Below the pieces are notes generated by a model. The model made no database searches. It was not told the DNA's origin and saw only the letters and a list, made by a program, of their open reading frames with translations. DNA of 64,000 nucleotides from Candidatus Tectimicrobiota bacterium (GTDB lineage Bacteria; JACPUC01), in the NCBI GenBank assembly GCA_016192455.1, contig JACPUC010000009.1:66886-130885 (forward strand), in the 5' to 3' direction. Shown here piece by piece: positions 848-21,256 of this stretch. Numbering within the stretch: position 1 is the first letter of the stretch; the number at the start of each line of letters is the position of its first letter. A program made the translations under genes and the position numbers.

Positions 848-1273
848 CGCTGCCGGCGACGAGGCGGCGCGGACCTCGCCGCGGAGCCGGTGCCGGGCTG
901 TCGGGGATGCCGGTCTCGGCGCCCGCCGATACCATCACCACTCAGCACGGGAGAGACGTTGTCCCTGCTTGTGGGCATGAGCAGGGGAGAGGGGTTCTGT
1001 GCGCTGCGGCCGCGGACCACCGCCCAGGTTGGCGGTTCCCAGGTTCTTGGGTCACCCAGGTGCTGTTTCACAAATTCTATCGCAAGAATTTGCGAGGGAG
1101 CCTCGCCCCCTCGCGCACCCCGACTACGCGAGCTGCTGCGCAGCTCGCGGGGATTCGGGGGGTGGGGAAGCAAAGGTCTTGCGCAAAAACTCCCCGACCA
1201 CATGGCCCGAAGAAGGCGTCCGATTAAGGATGGAATTTGTGTGACGTAACACTAGTCAGGAGCGAGGTGCGGC
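848..1273. other. Intergenic region with one interspersed repeat copy
   Basis: No convincing gene lies between the sigma-54 activator and the first ubiD homologue. The only recognisable structure is the minus-oriented repeat at about 1085-1189, listed separately. The short stretch 1200-1273 before ubiD has a lower GC content and carries GAGCGAGG about 5 nt before the start. Confidence 0.6.
1085..1189 (-). repeat. Interspersed modular repeat, copy A
   Basis: Read on the minus strand, this copy runs from a T-rich end (1189) through CTTTGCTTCCCC, a perfect hairpin and GGGGTGCGCGAGGGGGCG to CTCCCTCGCA. The hairpin at 1127-1149 has arms CGCGAGCTG and CAGCTCGCG around a 5-nt loop. The same modules recur near 8.1, 12.6, 13.8 and 19.0 kb. 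The element is intergenic with no ORF of its own, like a REP element or small MITE. Confidence 0.8.
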
Positions 1274-8070: not shown

Positions 8071-8180
8071 AAGAGGGAACCTTCTCCCCTGGCGCACCCC
8101 GTTTACGCGAGCTGCTGCGCAGCCTGCGGGGAGGAGGGGTGTGGGGGAGCATGGGCCCTCACAGGCCCCTTGCCAAAGCA
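8071..8180 (-). repeat. Interspersed modular repeat, copy B
   Basis: Same family as copy A and in the same orientation. It has the GGGAACCTTCTCCCC end, GGCGCACCCCGTTTACGCGAGCTG, and the partner arm. The hairpin at 8106-8128 is imperfect because the second arm reads CAGCCTGCG instead of CAGCTCGCG. The distal end contains CTTGCCAAAGCA in place of the T-rich tail. It appears older or more decayed than copy A. Confidence 0.7.
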
Positions 8181-11279: not shown

Positions 11280-11669
11280 TGGAGCTCCCCTCTGGGAAGG
11301 ATTCACCTACCCTCCTTCACCTCCAGGGAATCGGTACCACGCCTTCCGCCTTCACTCAACGGTGAAGCGGCATGGCTTCACTCCCCCCGCGGCTCCGTCT
11401 CCCCGCCGAAGGGGGACGCCGCGATCGCCGTTCGATCCCGCGGCAGGCCATTCTCAATCGCTTTTTCTTTGTCTTTTTTTTGCAACGAACGACTTTTTCC
11501 TTGATCTTCGTGTTTTCTTCATACATCTTAGAAGCAACGGCAGAGGTCGGCAAGCGCTCGGTGGGCGTTCGGGCGCCGTACGCCGCGCTCGGGCGCCCCG
11601 GGAGGCGAGGGGGCAAACGGCGCGGCAACGGCTCATGCTGACAGGCCCCCCTGCACGAGGAGCACCACG
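11280..11669. promoter_or_regulatory. Divergent control region upstream of lexA, with an AT-rich tract
   Basis: This is the only region upstream of lexA. It contains a strikingly T-rich, low-GC tract at about 11459-11530, including a run of eight T and a second run at CGACTTTTTCC, in otherwise GC-rich DNA. A sequence TTGATC followed 15 nt later by TACATC could be a weak sigma-70 promoter. No clean LexA operator palindrome could be recognised; GAACG occurs inside the tract. The position suggests a promoter with an upstream element for lexA and possibly for the divergent small gene. Confidence 0.4.
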
Positions 11670-12314
11670 ATGTACGTCACGAAGCGGCAGCGGCAAATCT
11701 ACGAGTTCATCAAGGCCAGCATCGAGACCAACGGCTACGCTCCCAGCCTGCAGGAAATCGGTGCTCAGTTCAACCTCTCCTCCCTCGCCACCATCCACAA
11801 GCACCTCACCAACCTGGAGGAGAAGGGCCTCATCGTGCGCCACTGGAACCGCAGCCGCGCCATCGAGCTGACCACCCCGCCAAGCCCCACCACCACGCAG
11901 CGCGGCGGCCGCCCCGTGTCCTCCGCCGTGGAGCTGCCGCTGCTCGGGCGCATCGCCGCCGGCCAGCCGCTGGAGGCCGTGCAGGACAGCGAGAGCATCC
12001 TCGTGCCGCCGGACATGGTCGGCCGCCAGAAGACCTACGTCCTGCGCGTCACCGGCGACTCGATGATCGAGGAGCACATCCGCGAAGGGGACTACGTCAT
12101 CGTCGAGGAGCGCCAAACCGCCTCGAACGGCGACACCGTCGTCGCCCTCATCGACGGCGACAGCGCCACGCTGAAGAAGTTCTTCCGCGAGGGCGACCGC
12201 ATCCGCCTGCAGCCGGCCAACGCCACCATGCAGCCGATCTACGTCACCGGCGACCGCCTCGCCATCCAGGGCATCGTCATCGGCATCCTGCGGAAGTACC
12301 GGGCCGGGAGGTAG
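11670..12314 (+). CDS. lexA: LexA repressor, SOS regulator and self-cleaving S24 peptidase
   Basis: LexA represses DNA-damage genes and cleaves itself when RecA is activated. The 214-aa protein has an N-terminal winged helix (YVTKRQRQIYEFIKASIETN, with APSLQEIGAQFNLSS as recognition region). A linker follows with the scissile Ala97-Gly98 in GRIAAGQPLEA. The S24 domain has nucleophile Ser131 (VTGDSM) and general base Lys169 in SATLKKFF. All functional residues are present. GGAGCACCACG precedes the ATG. Downstream on the same strand lie a small basic ORF, a DNA adenine methylase and dinB. dinB is a typical LexA target, so this is probably a local SOS block. Confidence 0.97.
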   Translation: MYVTKRQRQIYEFIKASIETNGYAPSLQEIGAQFNLSSLATIHKHLTNLEEKGLIVRHWNRSRAIELTTPPSPTTTQRGGRPVSSAVELPLLGRIAAGQPLEAVQDSESILVPPDMVGRQKTYVLRVTGDSMIEEHIREGDYVIVEERQTASNGDTVVALIDGDSATLKKFFREGDRIRLQPANATMQPIYVTGDRLAIQGIVIGILRKYRAGR

Positions 12315-12326
12315 GGAGGCGACGTG

Positions 12327-12575
12327 ATGCTTTGGAAGGAACGCAATCAGGTGAAGCGCCGGATGTGGGGGCTGACGCTTAGGCGGCAGATGCGGCGGCT
12401 GCCGCTGCCGAGCGTGCTGGAGGCGGCCGAGCTGCGGCGCCGGCGGCAGGCGCAGCTCATCGCCCTGGCGCTGGCGGCCGAAAGCGGCGCGCGACAATTC
12501 CACAATGGAAGCAAGCCGCCATCATCCATGAACGTGGCCAATGCCCGCTCGTGTTGCTTCGCAAACGTCCGCTAA
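12327..12575 (+). CDS. Small basic hypothetical protein downstream of lexA, possibly truncated
   Basis: This 82-aa ORF begins 12 nt after lexA, with GGGAGGCGACGTG before the ATG (a GTG directly in front, at 12324, is the alternative start). It could be translated from the lexA transcript. The N-terminal 55 residues are Arg- and Leu-rich (RMWGLTLRRQMRRLPLP, ELRRRRQAQLIALALAAE) and probably helical. The last 25 residues lose this character and end only 11 bp before repeat copy C, so the original 3' end may have been replaced when the repeat arrived. No family is recognised. The position resembles damage-inducible accessory genes near lexA, but that is only context. Confidence 0.4.
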   Translation: MLWKERNQVKRRMWGLTLRRQMRRLPLPSVLEAAELRRRRQAQLIALALAAESGARQFHNGSKPPSSMNVANARSCCFANVR

Positions 12576-12586
12576 TAAATTGGATG

Positions 12587-12728
12587 CGTTGCAGGCGACA
12601 TTTTTGTGGGGGACCCTTGCTCCCCTGCCGCCCCAGCGGGGAAGGCTCCACGCCCATTCCCCGCGAGCTGCGCAGCAGCTCGCGGAGAAGGGGTGCGCGA
12701 GGGGGCGCGGCTCCCTCGCACGAAAACT
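12587..12728 (+). repeat. Interspersed modular repeat, copy C, left flank of the methylase gene
   Basis: This copy begins with CGTTGCAGG and a TTTTTGTGGGGGACCCTTGC module. It contains a perfect hairpin at 12661-12685 (arms CCGCGAGCTG and CAGCTCGCGG, loop CGCAG) and ends with GGGGTGCGCGAGGGGGCG, CTCCCTCGCA and a short A-run. The same outer modules occur in the same order and orientation at 13723-13869 on the other side of the methylase gene. Confidence 0.85.
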
Positions 12729-12773
12729 CCCTTCGCCAGAACCAGTATTCGCTCTTCGCTCGCGGGATAACCT

Positions 12774-13649
12774 ATGAAGCAAAAACTCCCGTCACAAATT
12801 TACCTCGATGAAAAGTCGCTACACCATGACAATGGCAGCATTGCACGCCGCCGCTCGAAACTCATCGCCTTCGGTTGGTATGGTGGTAAGTTCAATCACC
12901 TCAATTGGCTGCTTCCTTTATTGCCGAGGTGCCATCATTATTGCGAGCCGTTTGCCGGCTCAGCCGCGGTCCTGTTCAATCGTGATCCCTCTCCTGTTGA
13001 AACGTACAACGATCTTGATGGCGAGGTCGTCAACTTTTTCCGTGTCTTGCGCGAGCAGAAAGAGAAGCTGCTCGAGTCCATAGGGCTTACGCCATTTTCC
13101 AGGGAAGAATTCTACTTTGCCGTAACGGATAGCGAAGAACCGTTATCCGATTTGGAACACGCGCGCCGTTTCTTTGTGCGGGCGCGACAGGCGCGCACGG
13201 GTCTGGCGCAAACCGCCTCGCTCGGGCGCTGGGCGAACTGCAAGAACACCAGCCGCGCCGGCATGTCCGGGGTGGTATCGCGCTGGCTCGGCAGCGTGGA
13301 GATGCTGCCGGAAATCGCCGCGCGCCTCCTGCGTGTGCAGATCGAAAACCGCCCGGCGGTGGATGCCATTCGCTTGTATGACAGCCCTTCGACCCTGTTT
13401 TACTGCGATCCGCCGTATGTTCACGACAGCCGCGGCGACAGCAAAGCTTACGGTTTCGAGATGAATGACCTCGCGCACCAGGAGCTGGCGCGGCTCCTTC
13501 AGCAGTGCAAGGGGATGGTCGCTCTTTCGGGGTATCGTTGCGATCTGCTGGATTCCGTCTATAAAGACTGGCGCCGCCATGACGCCCCTGCGAAATACTG
13601 CCACTCCATCAAGAAACCGCGTCAGGAGGCGCTCTGGGTGAACTATTAA
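12774..13649 (+). CDS. DNA adenine N6-methyltransferase, D12 (Dam-like) class, solitary
   Basis: This 291-aa enzyme transfers a methyl group from S-adenosylmethionine to adenine N6. Motifs in order are FGWYGGK (33-39), SAM-binding motif I EPFAGSAAVLFN (58-69), and catalytic motif IV DPPY (212-215) in STLFYCDPPYVHDS. This is the alpha/D12 arrangement of Dam and phage-type enzymes. No restriction endonuclease is adjacent, so it is probably an orphan methylase; the target sequence cannot be read from this. Base composition is visibly less GC-rich than in lexA or dinB. Direct copies of an interspersed repeat flank it on both sides, which suggests acquisition as a cassette between lexA and dinB. 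The start is uncertain within the first 30 residues, which are poorly conserved. Confidence 0.92.
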   Translation: MKQKLPSQIYLDEKSLHHDNGSIARRRSKLIAFGWYGGKFNHLNWLLPLLPRCHHYCEPFAGSAAVLFNRDPSPVETYNDLDGEVVNFFRVLREQKEKLLESIGLTPFSREEFYFAVTDSEEPLSDLEHARRFFVRARQARTGLAQTASLGRWANCKNTSRAGMSGVVSRWLGSVEMLPEIAARLLRVQIENRPAVDAIRLYDSPSTLFYCDPPYVHDSRGDSKAYGFEMNDLAHQELARLLQQCKGMVALSGYRCDLLDSVYKDWRRHDAPAKYCHSIKKPRQEALWVNY

Positions 13650-13722
13650 CGCTTGCTGAGTCGCGACATGCTTGTTGATTATGCTAGTAGTGCGTCTCAC
13701 GAGTTCGTTGATACATTTAATT

Positions 13723-13869
13723 CGTTGCAGGTGGCATTGGCAGGAAGATTTCTTGTGGGGAACCCTTGCTCCCGCACATTCCCAATCCGCGCGAGCGGTA
13801 GGGGCGGTTCACGAACCGCCCCTACGAGTAGGGGTGCGCGAGGGGGCGCGGCTCCCTCGCAGAAAAACT
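13723..13869 (+). repeat. Interspersed modular repeat, copy D, right flank of the methylase gene, with exchanged hairpin
   Basis: Same outer modules as copy C: CGTTGCAGG, TTTCTTGTGGGGAACCCTTG and CTCCC on the left, and GGGGTGCGCGAGGGGGCG, CTCCCTCGCA and an A-run on the right. The family hairpin in the middle is replaced by another palindrome at 13798-13825, with arms GTAGGGGCGGTTC and GAACCGCCCCTAC. That second palindrome also occurs on its own at 21150-21177. The element therefore looks modular. Confidence 0.82.
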
Positions 13870-13873
13870 GTCT

Positions 13874-13906
13874 AAGATTGGCAACAATCTTGCTAATTTC
13901 GTTAAT
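13874..13906 (+). promoter_or_regulatory. Candidate dinB promoter with overlapping inverted repeat
   Basis: The -35 TTGGCA (13878-13883) and -10 GTTAAT (13901-13906) are separated by 17 bp, a reasonable sigma-70 match. A perfect inverted repeat, AAGATTG then loop GCAA then CAATCTT (13874-13891), overlaps the -35, as an operator would. It does not match a LexA operator that I can name, and lexA itself has no obvious copy. It lies about 110 bp before the dinB start. Confidence 0.4.
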
Positions 13907-14014
13907 GAACGTATGAGGCAGGAAATTAGGAAATCAACGCCCCCCTTCTCGCTGCCGCGCAGGCGTGGCGGCGCCGGAAGGAGTGGGGGGGCCTGCCTCG
14001 CCAGAAGATCACCC

Positions 14015-15295
14015 ATGCGGCAGATTCTCCATGTTGACATGGATACGTTCTTCGTGGCGGTGGAGCAGCGCCTCGATCCGTCGCTGCTCGGCAAGCCGGT
14101 CATCGTCGGCGGGCATCCCGAGGGGCGCGGCGTGGTGGCGGCGTGCTCCTACGAGGCCCGCGCCTTCGGCGTGCACTCCGCCATGCCGCTGGCGCAGGCT
14201 TTGCGCCTCTGCCCGCGCGCCGTCTTCCTGCGCGGCGCCTATGACAACTACCTGCGCGCCAGCCTGGAAGTCTTCCGCATCCTGAAGCAGTTCACCCCCC
14301 TCGTCGAGCCGACCTCCCTCGACGAGGCGTACCTCGACGTCAGCGCCTGCCTGCGCCTGCACGGCCATGCCATGGCGATCGCGGAGACGATCCACGAGCG
14401 CATCGCCGGGCGGCTGGCGCTGCCCGCCTCGGTGGGTCTCGCCACCAGCAAGATCGTGGCCAAGGTGGCCTCGCGGCGCGCCAAGCCGAACGGCATCCTG
14501 CGCGTCCTTCCCGGCGCGGAGGCGGCGTTCCTGGCGCCGCTCTCCCTGCGCGAGCTGCCGGGCATCGGGCCGAGCACGGCGGAGCGCCTCCAGAGCCTCG
14601 GCCTGCGCGCCATCGGCGAGCTGGCGCACCTGCCGCCCGCCATGCTCGAGACCGTCTTCGGCAAGACAGGTCGCCTGCTGACGCAGCGCGCCCGCGGCAT
14701 CGACGCCTCCCCCGTGGTCACCGGCTCCGTGGTCAAGTCGGTCGGCCACGAAACCACCTTTGAAACGGATACCGCCGACCGCGGGGAGCTCGAAGCGGTC
14801 CTCGCCCACCTCACCGAGAAGGCCACGCGCCGCCTGCGCCGCCTCCCCATGCAGGCCCGGACCGTCACCCTGAAGCTGCGCTACGCCGATTTCACGACCG
14901 TCAGCCGCTCCCGCACCCTGCGCGCCGCCACCGACCTCGACACCGAGGTCTATCGCACCGCCGGCCGCCTCCTGCGCAGCCTGTTGACGCGCCGCGTGCG
15001 CGTCCGCCTCCTCGGCGTCAGCCTCTCGAACCTCTGCGAGGGCGAGCGCCAGCTCGACCTCTTCGGCGAGGGGCGCTGCGCCAAGTACCGCGGCTTCTAC
15101 CGCGCCGTCGATACCCTGCGGGACCGGTTTGGCTTCGATGTGGTGACCGTGGGGCGCGCCGCCCTCTTGCAGCCGGCCGCGCGGCGGGGCGAGCGCCACC
15201 TCAACCCGTTTCGACCCGCGCTTGACCAGGAAGAGAGGAAGAAGGGAGAGGGCACGCCGGAGGAGGGCGGGCCGTCGTTCCAGGACGCGGCCTGA
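14015..15295 (+). CDS. dinB: DNA polymerase IV (Y-family translesion polymerase)
   Basis: Pol IV copies past damaged bases without proofreading. The 426-aa protein has catalytic Asp8 in HVDMDTFFVAVEQR, the SYEARAFGVHSAMP block, the acidic pair at 103-104 in PTSLDEAYLDVS, and the helix-hairpin-helix region LRELPGIGPSTAERLQSLG. The little-finger domain follows, with a canonical beta-clamp-binding motif QLDLF at about 346-350. A poorly conserved tail of about 75 residues follows the clamp motif. I chose ATG 14015 because the conserved protein starts there; an ATG at 13913 would add 34 unconserved residues. It lies downstream of lexA and a methylase, consistent with SOS control. It faces the minus-strand hydantoinase B gene, 44 bp away. 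Confidence 0.96.
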   Translation: MRQILHVDMDTFFVAVEQRLDPSLLGKPVIVGGHPEGRGVVAACSYEARAFGVHSAMPLAQALRLCPRAVFLRGAYDNYLRASLEVFRILKQFTPLVEPTSLDEAYLDVSACLRLHGHAMAIAETIHERIAGRLALPASVGLATSKIVAKVASRRAKPNGILRVLPGAEAAFLAPLSLRELPGIGPSTAERLQSLGLRAIGELAHLPPAMLETVFGKTGRLLTQRARGIDASPVVTGSVVKSVGHETTFETDTADRGELEAVLAHLTEKATRRLRRLPMQARTVTLKLRYADFTTVSRSRTLRAATDLDTEVYRTAGRLLRSLLTRRVRVRLLGVSLSNLCEGERQLDLFGEGRCAKYRGFYRAVDTLRDRFGFDVVTVGRAALLQPAARRGERHLNPFRPALDQEERKKGEGTPEEGGPSFQDAA

Positions 15296-18943: not shown

Positions 18944-19043
18944 ACCTGGGGGATCATTGATCCCCCAGACCCCCTCTCCTCGCGAGCTGCGCCGCAGCTC
19001 GCGTAAGCGGGGTGCGCGAGGGGAGATTGTCCCCTCGCATCAT
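18944..19043 (+). repeat. Interspersed modular repeat, copy E, between purH and purD
   Basis: Two palindromes sit side by side. A perfect one at 18946-18968 has arms CTGGGGGATCA and TGATCCCCCAG around a single T. The family hairpin at 18981-19003 has arms CGCGAGCTG and CAGCTCGCG. They are followed by GCGGGGTGCGCGAGGGGA and CCCCTCGCA. Inside a purH-purD transcript these hairpins could affect RNA stability or partial termination. Confidence 0.75.
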
Positions 19044-21043: not shown

Positions 21044-21149
21044 GCTCTGCACATCCCGCCGCTGTACCACGCACGGCGGCAAACCTGCAAGCTCGTGAAA
21101 TCAACCACTTAGACGGCTAGTTCCGAGGCAGGGTTCCATCCCATCGACC

Positions 21150-21177
21150 GTAGGGGCGGTTCGCGAACCGCCCCTAC
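21150..21177. repeat. Palindrome of the GTAGGGGCGGTTC family
   Basis: Two perfect 13-nt arms, GTAGGGGCGGTTC and GAACCGCCCCTAC, surround GC. It is identical to the palindrome in the centre of repeat copy D (13798-13825) except for the two central bases (GC here, AC there). Confidence 0.8.
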
Positions 21178-21256
21178 CATCGGCATGCAAGGACCCGTGG
21201 AGGGAGGCTGAGATCGGTGTGCGTCCGTGTCGAGCGGTGGTTCCTTCCGCTCCCTT

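What the first reader, a model, noticed from the sequence alone, without database searches (positions are those of the whole stretch)
12587..13869. Solitary adenine methylase bracketed by direct repeats between lexA and dinB
The dam-like gene (12774-13649) is flanked by two repeat copies in the same orientation (12587-12728 and 13723-13869). Both begin with CGTTGCAGG and end with CTCCCTCGCA plus an A-run. The gene is less GC-rich than its neighbours, has no restriction partner, and splits an otherwise classic lexA...dinB neighbourhood. This looks like a cassette brought in by the repeats, or by recombination between them. It would place DNA adenine methylation under, or near, SOS control.
Basis: partly seen in the sequence, partly recalled or inferred. 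Interest (0 to 1): 0.6.

Follow-up and report, generated by a model that had tools for sequence, protein, structure and literature searches.

The report
Orphan methylase from lost restriction system
Between two DNA-damage genes sits an intact DNA-methylating enzyme whose relatives nearly always come paired with a DNA-cutting partner that is missing here; the repeats on either side are two of well over a hundred copies scattered through the genome and probably had nothing to do with bringing it in.

Summary
In detail: an intact D12-class adenine methylase (12774-13649) lies between lexA and dinB, with same-orientation repeats on both sides and no restriction gene. The repeats are not a cassette boundary. 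They belong to a dispersed, MITE-like family (terminal inverted repeats, about 200 bp when complete; 111 strict core matches genome-wide, five copies in this window). They also bracket ordinary genes elsewhere. The methylase is the modification half of a Type II restriction-modification system annotated as SacI family. Of 24 relatives (56-73% identity), 21 carry the endonuclease immediately downstream, including all 14 on plasmids and chromosomes. Here it is gone, and a repeat begins about 34 bp after the methylase stop codon. The gene is GC-poorer than lexA and dinB, but its codon usage is ordinary for the genome. No LexA-box-like site was found and lexA-dinB adjacency was absent around 20 distant dinB genes, so SOS control is unsupported. 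Unexpected: the genome nearly lacks CAGCTG (12 seen, 426 expected in 861 kb), and most genomes carrying relatives of this methylase are poor in CAGCTG too. CAGCTG may be the target, with the depletion a footprint of the lost enzyme (suggestive only). Ordinary in kind: a decayed restriction-modification system.

The parts
11670..12314 (+). lexA, complete SOS repressor gene
   Evidence: TIGR00498 lexA E 6e-60; LexA_DNA_bind and Peptidase_S24 domains
12587..12728 (+). repeat copy 1, a degenerate member of the dispersed MITE-like family; left terminal inverted repeat not convincingly recognisable (14 of 24 positions at 12551)
12774..13649 (+). solitary D12-class N6-adenine DNA methyltransferase, the modification half of a SacI-family-type Type II system; conserved EPFAGS and DPPY motifs intact, C-terminus not truncated
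   Evidence: Pfam PF02086 E 2e-22; PADLOC MTase_II E 3e-56; 65-72% identity to bacterial plasmid RM methylases; alignment
13684..13869 (+). repeat copy 2 with a recognisable left terminal inverted repeat at about 13684-13707, right end decayed; occupies the place where the endonuclease gene begins in relatives
   Evidence: endonuclease position in relatives
13870..14014 (.). spacer before dinB, no recognisable endonuclease remnant
   Evidence: tblastn with five SacI-family endonucleases gave only chance-level pieces
14015..15295 (+). dinB, DNA polymerase IV
   Evidence: IMS domains, E 6e-48 and 3e-31; NCBIfam DNA polymerase IV
1091..1165 (-). another copy of the same repeat family
   Evidence: 89% identity over 75 nt; TIRs on both sides, 196 bp
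8073..8144 (-). another copy of the same repeat family
   Evidence: 79% identity over 72 nt
18969..19039 (+). another copy of the same repeat family
   Evidence: 77% identity over 71 nt; nhmmer E 1.5e-18

Best explanation
The gene is the surviving methylase of a horizontally acquired Type II restriction-modification system of the SacI-annotated family. The system entered the lexA-dinB interval; its endonuclease gene, normally directly downstream, was then lost, leaving an intact orphan adenine methylase. The flanking repeats are independent insertions of a resident MITE-like family found mostly in gaps between genes. One of them now sits where the endonuclease was and may have taken part in its deletion (inferred, not shown). 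The enzyme probably still methylates adenine at its site, perhaps CAGCTG; its location gives no evidence of SOS control.
For: 21 of 24 relatives have the endonuclease immediately downstream: 7 of 7 plasmid records, 7 of 7 other genomes, 7 of 10 viral contigs. No endonuclease in the own genome with a profile that detects every branch of the family (sensitivity check) or with PF09566 (a weaker test). All catalytic motifs kept and C-terminus like that of its nearest relatives. Repeat family: at least 111 copies genome-wide, TIR pairs 196-212 bp apart, other ordinary genes bracketed the same way. Patchy distribution: 8 of 386 genomes searched (the own one included) carry the gene or a close relative, in unrelated lineages.
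Against: No close relative is available, so neither the empty site nor the intact two-gene ancestor has been seen in this lineage. The genome is 88% complete, so an endonuclease could lie in the missing part. Three viral relatives also lack the endonuclease, so it may have arrived as an orphan. Codon usage is not that of a recent import (45th percentile).
Confidence: 0.72

Rival explanations
1. A cassette brought in, or still mobilisable, by its two flanking direct repeats: a composite MITE-bounded unit or an insertion by recombination between repeats.
For: Two same-orientation copies tightly flank the gene, and the gene is GC-poorer than its neighbours.
Against: The same family has 111 or more copies; pairs at the same spacing bracket high-GC ordinary genes. 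Middle hairpins of the two copies differ and neither copy keeps both TIRs, so they are not a matched pair. No transposase nearby. Chromosomal relatives of the gene sit in arbitrary neighbourhoods.
Confidence: 0.08
2. A captured phage orphan methylase (anti-restriction gene) that never had an endonuclease partner here.
For: Strong phage-family match phrog_56 E 3e-64; three viral-contig relatives without endonuclease (L080, L084, L086), one of them (L084) near the window gene in the tree.
Against: No phage gene next to it; the nearest row by path (L079) and most neighbours in the tree carry the endonuclease; phage genomes in GenBank reach only about 40% identity.
Confidence: 0.17
3. A domesticated regulatory methylase placed under SOS control by its position after lexA.
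For: Position between lexA and dinB on the same strand. In one unrelated genome the intact two-gene system lies directly after recA (L187/L226).
Against: No recognisable LexA box or sigma-70-like promoter; a repeat and 459 bp separate it from lexA; six other chromosomal relatives have neighbourhoods not obviously related to SOS.
Confidence: 0.03

Closest known systems
Type II restriction-modification systems annotated 'SacI family' (D12 adenine methylase plus RE_SacI-like endonuclease), e.g. Agrobacterium plasmid pAtCFBP6626a, Nostoc pTCL26-01_B, Aeromonas pKAM339_3
   Same: The methylase, 65-72% identical with all motifs and the same C-terminal end as the Agrobacterium-type branch.
   Different: No endonuclease here; chromosomal contig, between lexA and dinB.
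Orphan (solitary) DNA methyltransferases alongside RM systems, as surveyed in Halobacteria (PMC6471742) and reviewed in PMC12707154
   Same: Methylase without its partner; patchy distribution of the family by transfer and loss.
   Different: No evidence of conservation within a lineage, because no close relative is held.
Bacterial MITEs (e.g. MITEAba12, PMC6382973)
   Same: Flanking repeats are short, numerous, non-coding and have terminal inverted repeats when complete.
   Different: Target-site duplication not settled; no autonomous parent element identified; variable inner hairpins.
Dam / DpnIIA methylases (solved structure 2dpm)
   Same: D12-class by sequence (E 9e-11).
   Different: Below the NCBIfam Dam cut-off (72.5 against 114.85 bits); not a Dam orthologue.

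Membership tests
D12-class N6-adenine DNA methyltransferase | PF02086 match above cut-off with intact AdoMet-binding and DPPY catalytic motifs | tested here: met
   80.5 bits against a cut-off of 22; motifs conserved in the alignment
D12-class N6-adenine DNA methyltransferase | adenine methylation activity | not testable with these tools
   needs long-read modification data or an assay
SacI-annotated Type II RM system | methylase of the matching subfamily | tested here: met
   56-73% identity to 24 methylases, 21 of them next to the endonuclease
SacI-annotated Type II RM system | cognate endonuclease present | tested here: not met
   none adjacent, none in the 88% complete genome with a profile that detects all branches
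Dam orthologue | passes the NCBIfam Dam cut-off | tested here: not met
   72.5 bits against 114.85
Orphan methyltransferase derived from RM | no endonuclease nearby while relatives have one | tested here: met
MITE (flanking repeats) | short, many copies, terminal inverted repeats | tested here: met
   met by the family: facing TIR pairs 196-212 bp apart, 111 strict core matches; the two window copies are decayed
MITE (flanking repeats) | target-site duplication and an autonomous parent transposon | tested here: inconclusive
   TA precedes most left ends but not all right ends; parent not sought exhaustively
SOS regulon member | LexA box upstream or SOS-dependent promoter | tested here: inconclusive
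   known motifs gave no convincing shared site upstream of lexA, the methylase, dinB or recA; the LexA box of this phylum is unknown

The most novel reading that the evidence does not exclude
The methylase subfamily, although annotated SacI (GAGCTC), targets CAGCTG. The near-total loss of CAGCTG from this genome is the lasting imprint of an endonuclease that has since disappeared, leaving a methylase whose few remaining sites could act as rare regulatory marks.
Probability: 0.25. Interest if true: 0.5.

Novelty: new member of a known kind. Interest (0 to 1): 0.3.

Why it matters
It shows how a striking 'gene between direct repeats' can be an accident of an abundant dispersed repeat. It also gives a clear case of a restriction-modification system reduced to its methylase in a barely sampled phylum. 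If the CAGCTG inference is right, it would correct the expected target of a methylase family annotated by homology to SacI and give an example of site avoidance outliving the endonuclease that caused it.

Tried and rejected
Repeat-borne cassette: rejected as the main reading because the repeat family is genome-wide and brackets ordinary genes too. SOS control: no LexA motif or sigma-70-like promoter. Truncated methylase: the apparent shorter C-terminus is the normal end in the Agrobacterium-type branch. Endonuclease relic between methylase and dinB: only chance-level tblastn pieces. Recurrent placement of this system at SOS loci: one of seven other chromosomal copies lies next to recA, the rest are elsewhere. 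GAGCTC as avoided site in this genome: ratio 0.59, rank 8 of 64 palindromes, not special. PvuII-type endonuclease as cause of CAGCTG depletion: PF09225 gave no hit, but the control genomes did not ring either, so this is uninformative. Repeat core in viral contigs: no exact match. Rfam: nothing over threshold in 11300-14100. A dinB scan of genome contigs returned only distant homologues, no close relative. RAYT transposase: a single partial Y1_Tnp match in the genome, not tied to the repeats. Paper searches for the modification target of SacI-family systems with adenine methylases gave nothing usable.

Full report
WHAT IS THERE. The window reads lexA (11670-12314), repeat copy 1 (12587-12728), a methylase gene (12774-13649), repeat copy 2 (about 13684-13869) and dinB (14015-15295), all on the + strand. 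The methylase is a complete D12-class enzyme (PF02086, E 2e-22), best described by PADLOC as a Type II methyltransferase (E 3e-56). It is not a Dam orthologue (72.5 bits against a cut-off of 114.85). The nearest solved structure is DpnIIA, 2dpm (E 9e-11).

THE REPEATS. The two copies share a 44-nt end at 93% and a 24-nt start at 92% identity, but their inner hairpins differ. They belong to a dispersed family: 54 BLAST places with only 40 of 264 candidates scored; 111 matches to a strict core pattern (55 + 56 by strand) against 0 for the reversed-pattern control; five copies in this 64-kb window. A profile found 70 hits in 861 kb of sampled genome, some being the two strands of one palindromic copy, or about one copy per 14 kb (part of the sample was chosen near known copies). 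Complete copies carry terminal inverted repeats (GTGTTACGTCACACAAATTCCATC and GTGTGCTGTTTCACAAATTCTATC) facing each other 196-212 bp apart, so the family is MITE-like. Copy 2 in the window keeps a left terminal repeat at about 13684; copy 1 keeps none convincingly.

IS THE BRACKETING MEANINGFUL? The same family brackets single genes elsewhere in the same orientation at similar spacing: an NAD-dependent epimerase (contig C6, 1.16 kb), an ABC-2 permease and a second epimerase (C6, 1.09 and 1.16 kb), and a gene for a 268-aa protein (C18, 1.05 kb). These genes are 65-68% GC, i.e. not foreign-looking. Close neighbours are somewhat commoner than a Poisson guess from the listed core places (about 8 pairs within 1.5 kb, against roughly 4 expected; my count), partly because some copies are tandem. 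Bracketing by this family is therefore common enough not to need a special explanation.

WHERE THE METHYLASE COMES FROM. Its closest relatives are 56-73% identical and lie on plasmids of Agrobacterium, Nostoc, Calothrix, Aeromonas, Comamonas and Halorussus, on viral contigs, and in seven unrelated genomes. In all 7 plasmid records, all 7 other genomes and 7 of 10 viral contigs a SacI-family-type endonuclease gene follows directly. The window gene has the same C-terminus as the Agrobacterium-type branch, so it is not truncated. No endonuclease relic lies between it and dinB. A profile of five endonucleases that detects every branch of the family (E 1e-18 or better on thirteen test loci) found none in the own genome. 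The genome is 88% complete, so absence is likely, not certain. In a tree of 24 methylases the orphan forms are scattered and the window gene joins no well-supported group; its nearest row by path (L079) carries the endonuclease.

COMPOSITION. The gene has 57.4% GC (8th percentile of 417 long ORFs), GC3 69% (30th percentile) and codon-usage likelihood at the 45th percentile; lexA and dinB are at the 99th and 87th. The ORF set is a crude, mechanical one. The gene differs from its neighbours but is not an outlier in the genome, which points to an import that is not very recent, or to a donor of similar usage.

SOS CONTROL. None of ten LexA-type motifs gave a convincing shared site upstream of lexA, the methylase, dinB or recA, and no sigma-70-like promoter was seen. 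The LexA box of this phylum is unknown, so this is weak negative evidence. Twenty distant dinB loci showed no lexA within reach. The intact system lies right after recA in one unrelated genome, but six others are in other neighbourhoods.

AN UNEXPECTED TRACE. Among 64 palindromic 6-mers, CAGCTG is almost absent from the own genome: 12 observed, 426 expected in 861 kb (ratio 0.028), the next lowest being 0.30; GAGCTC, the SacI site, is unremarkable at 0.59. G277, which has the two-gene system, shows the same (3 against 43). Whole-genome CAGCTG densities are lowest in four methylase-bearing genomes of 58 (8.3, 9.7, 11.3, 11.8 per Mb; lowest non-bearer 27.5). The bearers are lower overall (one-sided rank test p = 0.0007; 0.002 without the own genome). 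Cautions: the test was chosen after seeing the own genome and G277; densities are not corrected for base composition or phylogeny; G016 has the system and no depletion; G047 avoids GAGCTC more strongly; low-density non-bearers also show some CAGCTG avoidance; and this genome has nine matches to other N6/N4 methylase domains, one of which could belong to a CAGCTG system. It is a lead, not a result.

WHAT IS SHOWN AND WHAT IS INFERRED. Shown: intact methylase, absent adjacent endonuclease, near-universal endonuclease partner in relatives, genome-wide repeat family. Inferred: that the endonuclease was once here and was lost; that the repeats came independently; that the enzyme is active. Not testable here: an empty site in close relatives, because the phylum has no other genome in the collection and a dinB scan of genome contigs found only distant homologues.

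Noticed in passing
whole genome (sampled in 861 kb; 37 sites in 4.46 Mb): CAGCTG is almost absent (12 observed against 426 expected in the sample); several other genomes with relatives of this methylase are also very poor in CAGCTG.
   Followed up: partly
L187 and L226 (genome G150): In an unrelated genome the intact methylase-endonuclease pair starts about 30 bp after the stop codon of recA, on the same strand.
   Followed up: partly
own genome, e.g. L175-L181: Nine matches to the N6_N4_Mtase domain: the genome appears rich in other DNA methylases or restriction systems, one with an internal TAG stop (L178).
   Followed up: no
window 13798-13825 and 21149-21178: A second palindrome, GTAGGGGCGGTTC(N)GAACCGCCCCTAC, is embedded in repeat copy 2 and occurs on its own elsewhere in the window, suggesting nested repeat families.
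   Followed up: no
window 13874-13891: Palindrome AAGATTGGCAACAATCTT in an AT-rich stretch just after repeat copy 2, upstream of dinB; could be an operator or a leftover of imported DNA.
   Followed up: no
window 12324-12575: Small ORF (83 aa) directly after lexA with no Pfam match; its 3' end runs to the edge of repeat copy 1, so it may be a gene clipped by the repeat or not a gene.
   Followed up: no
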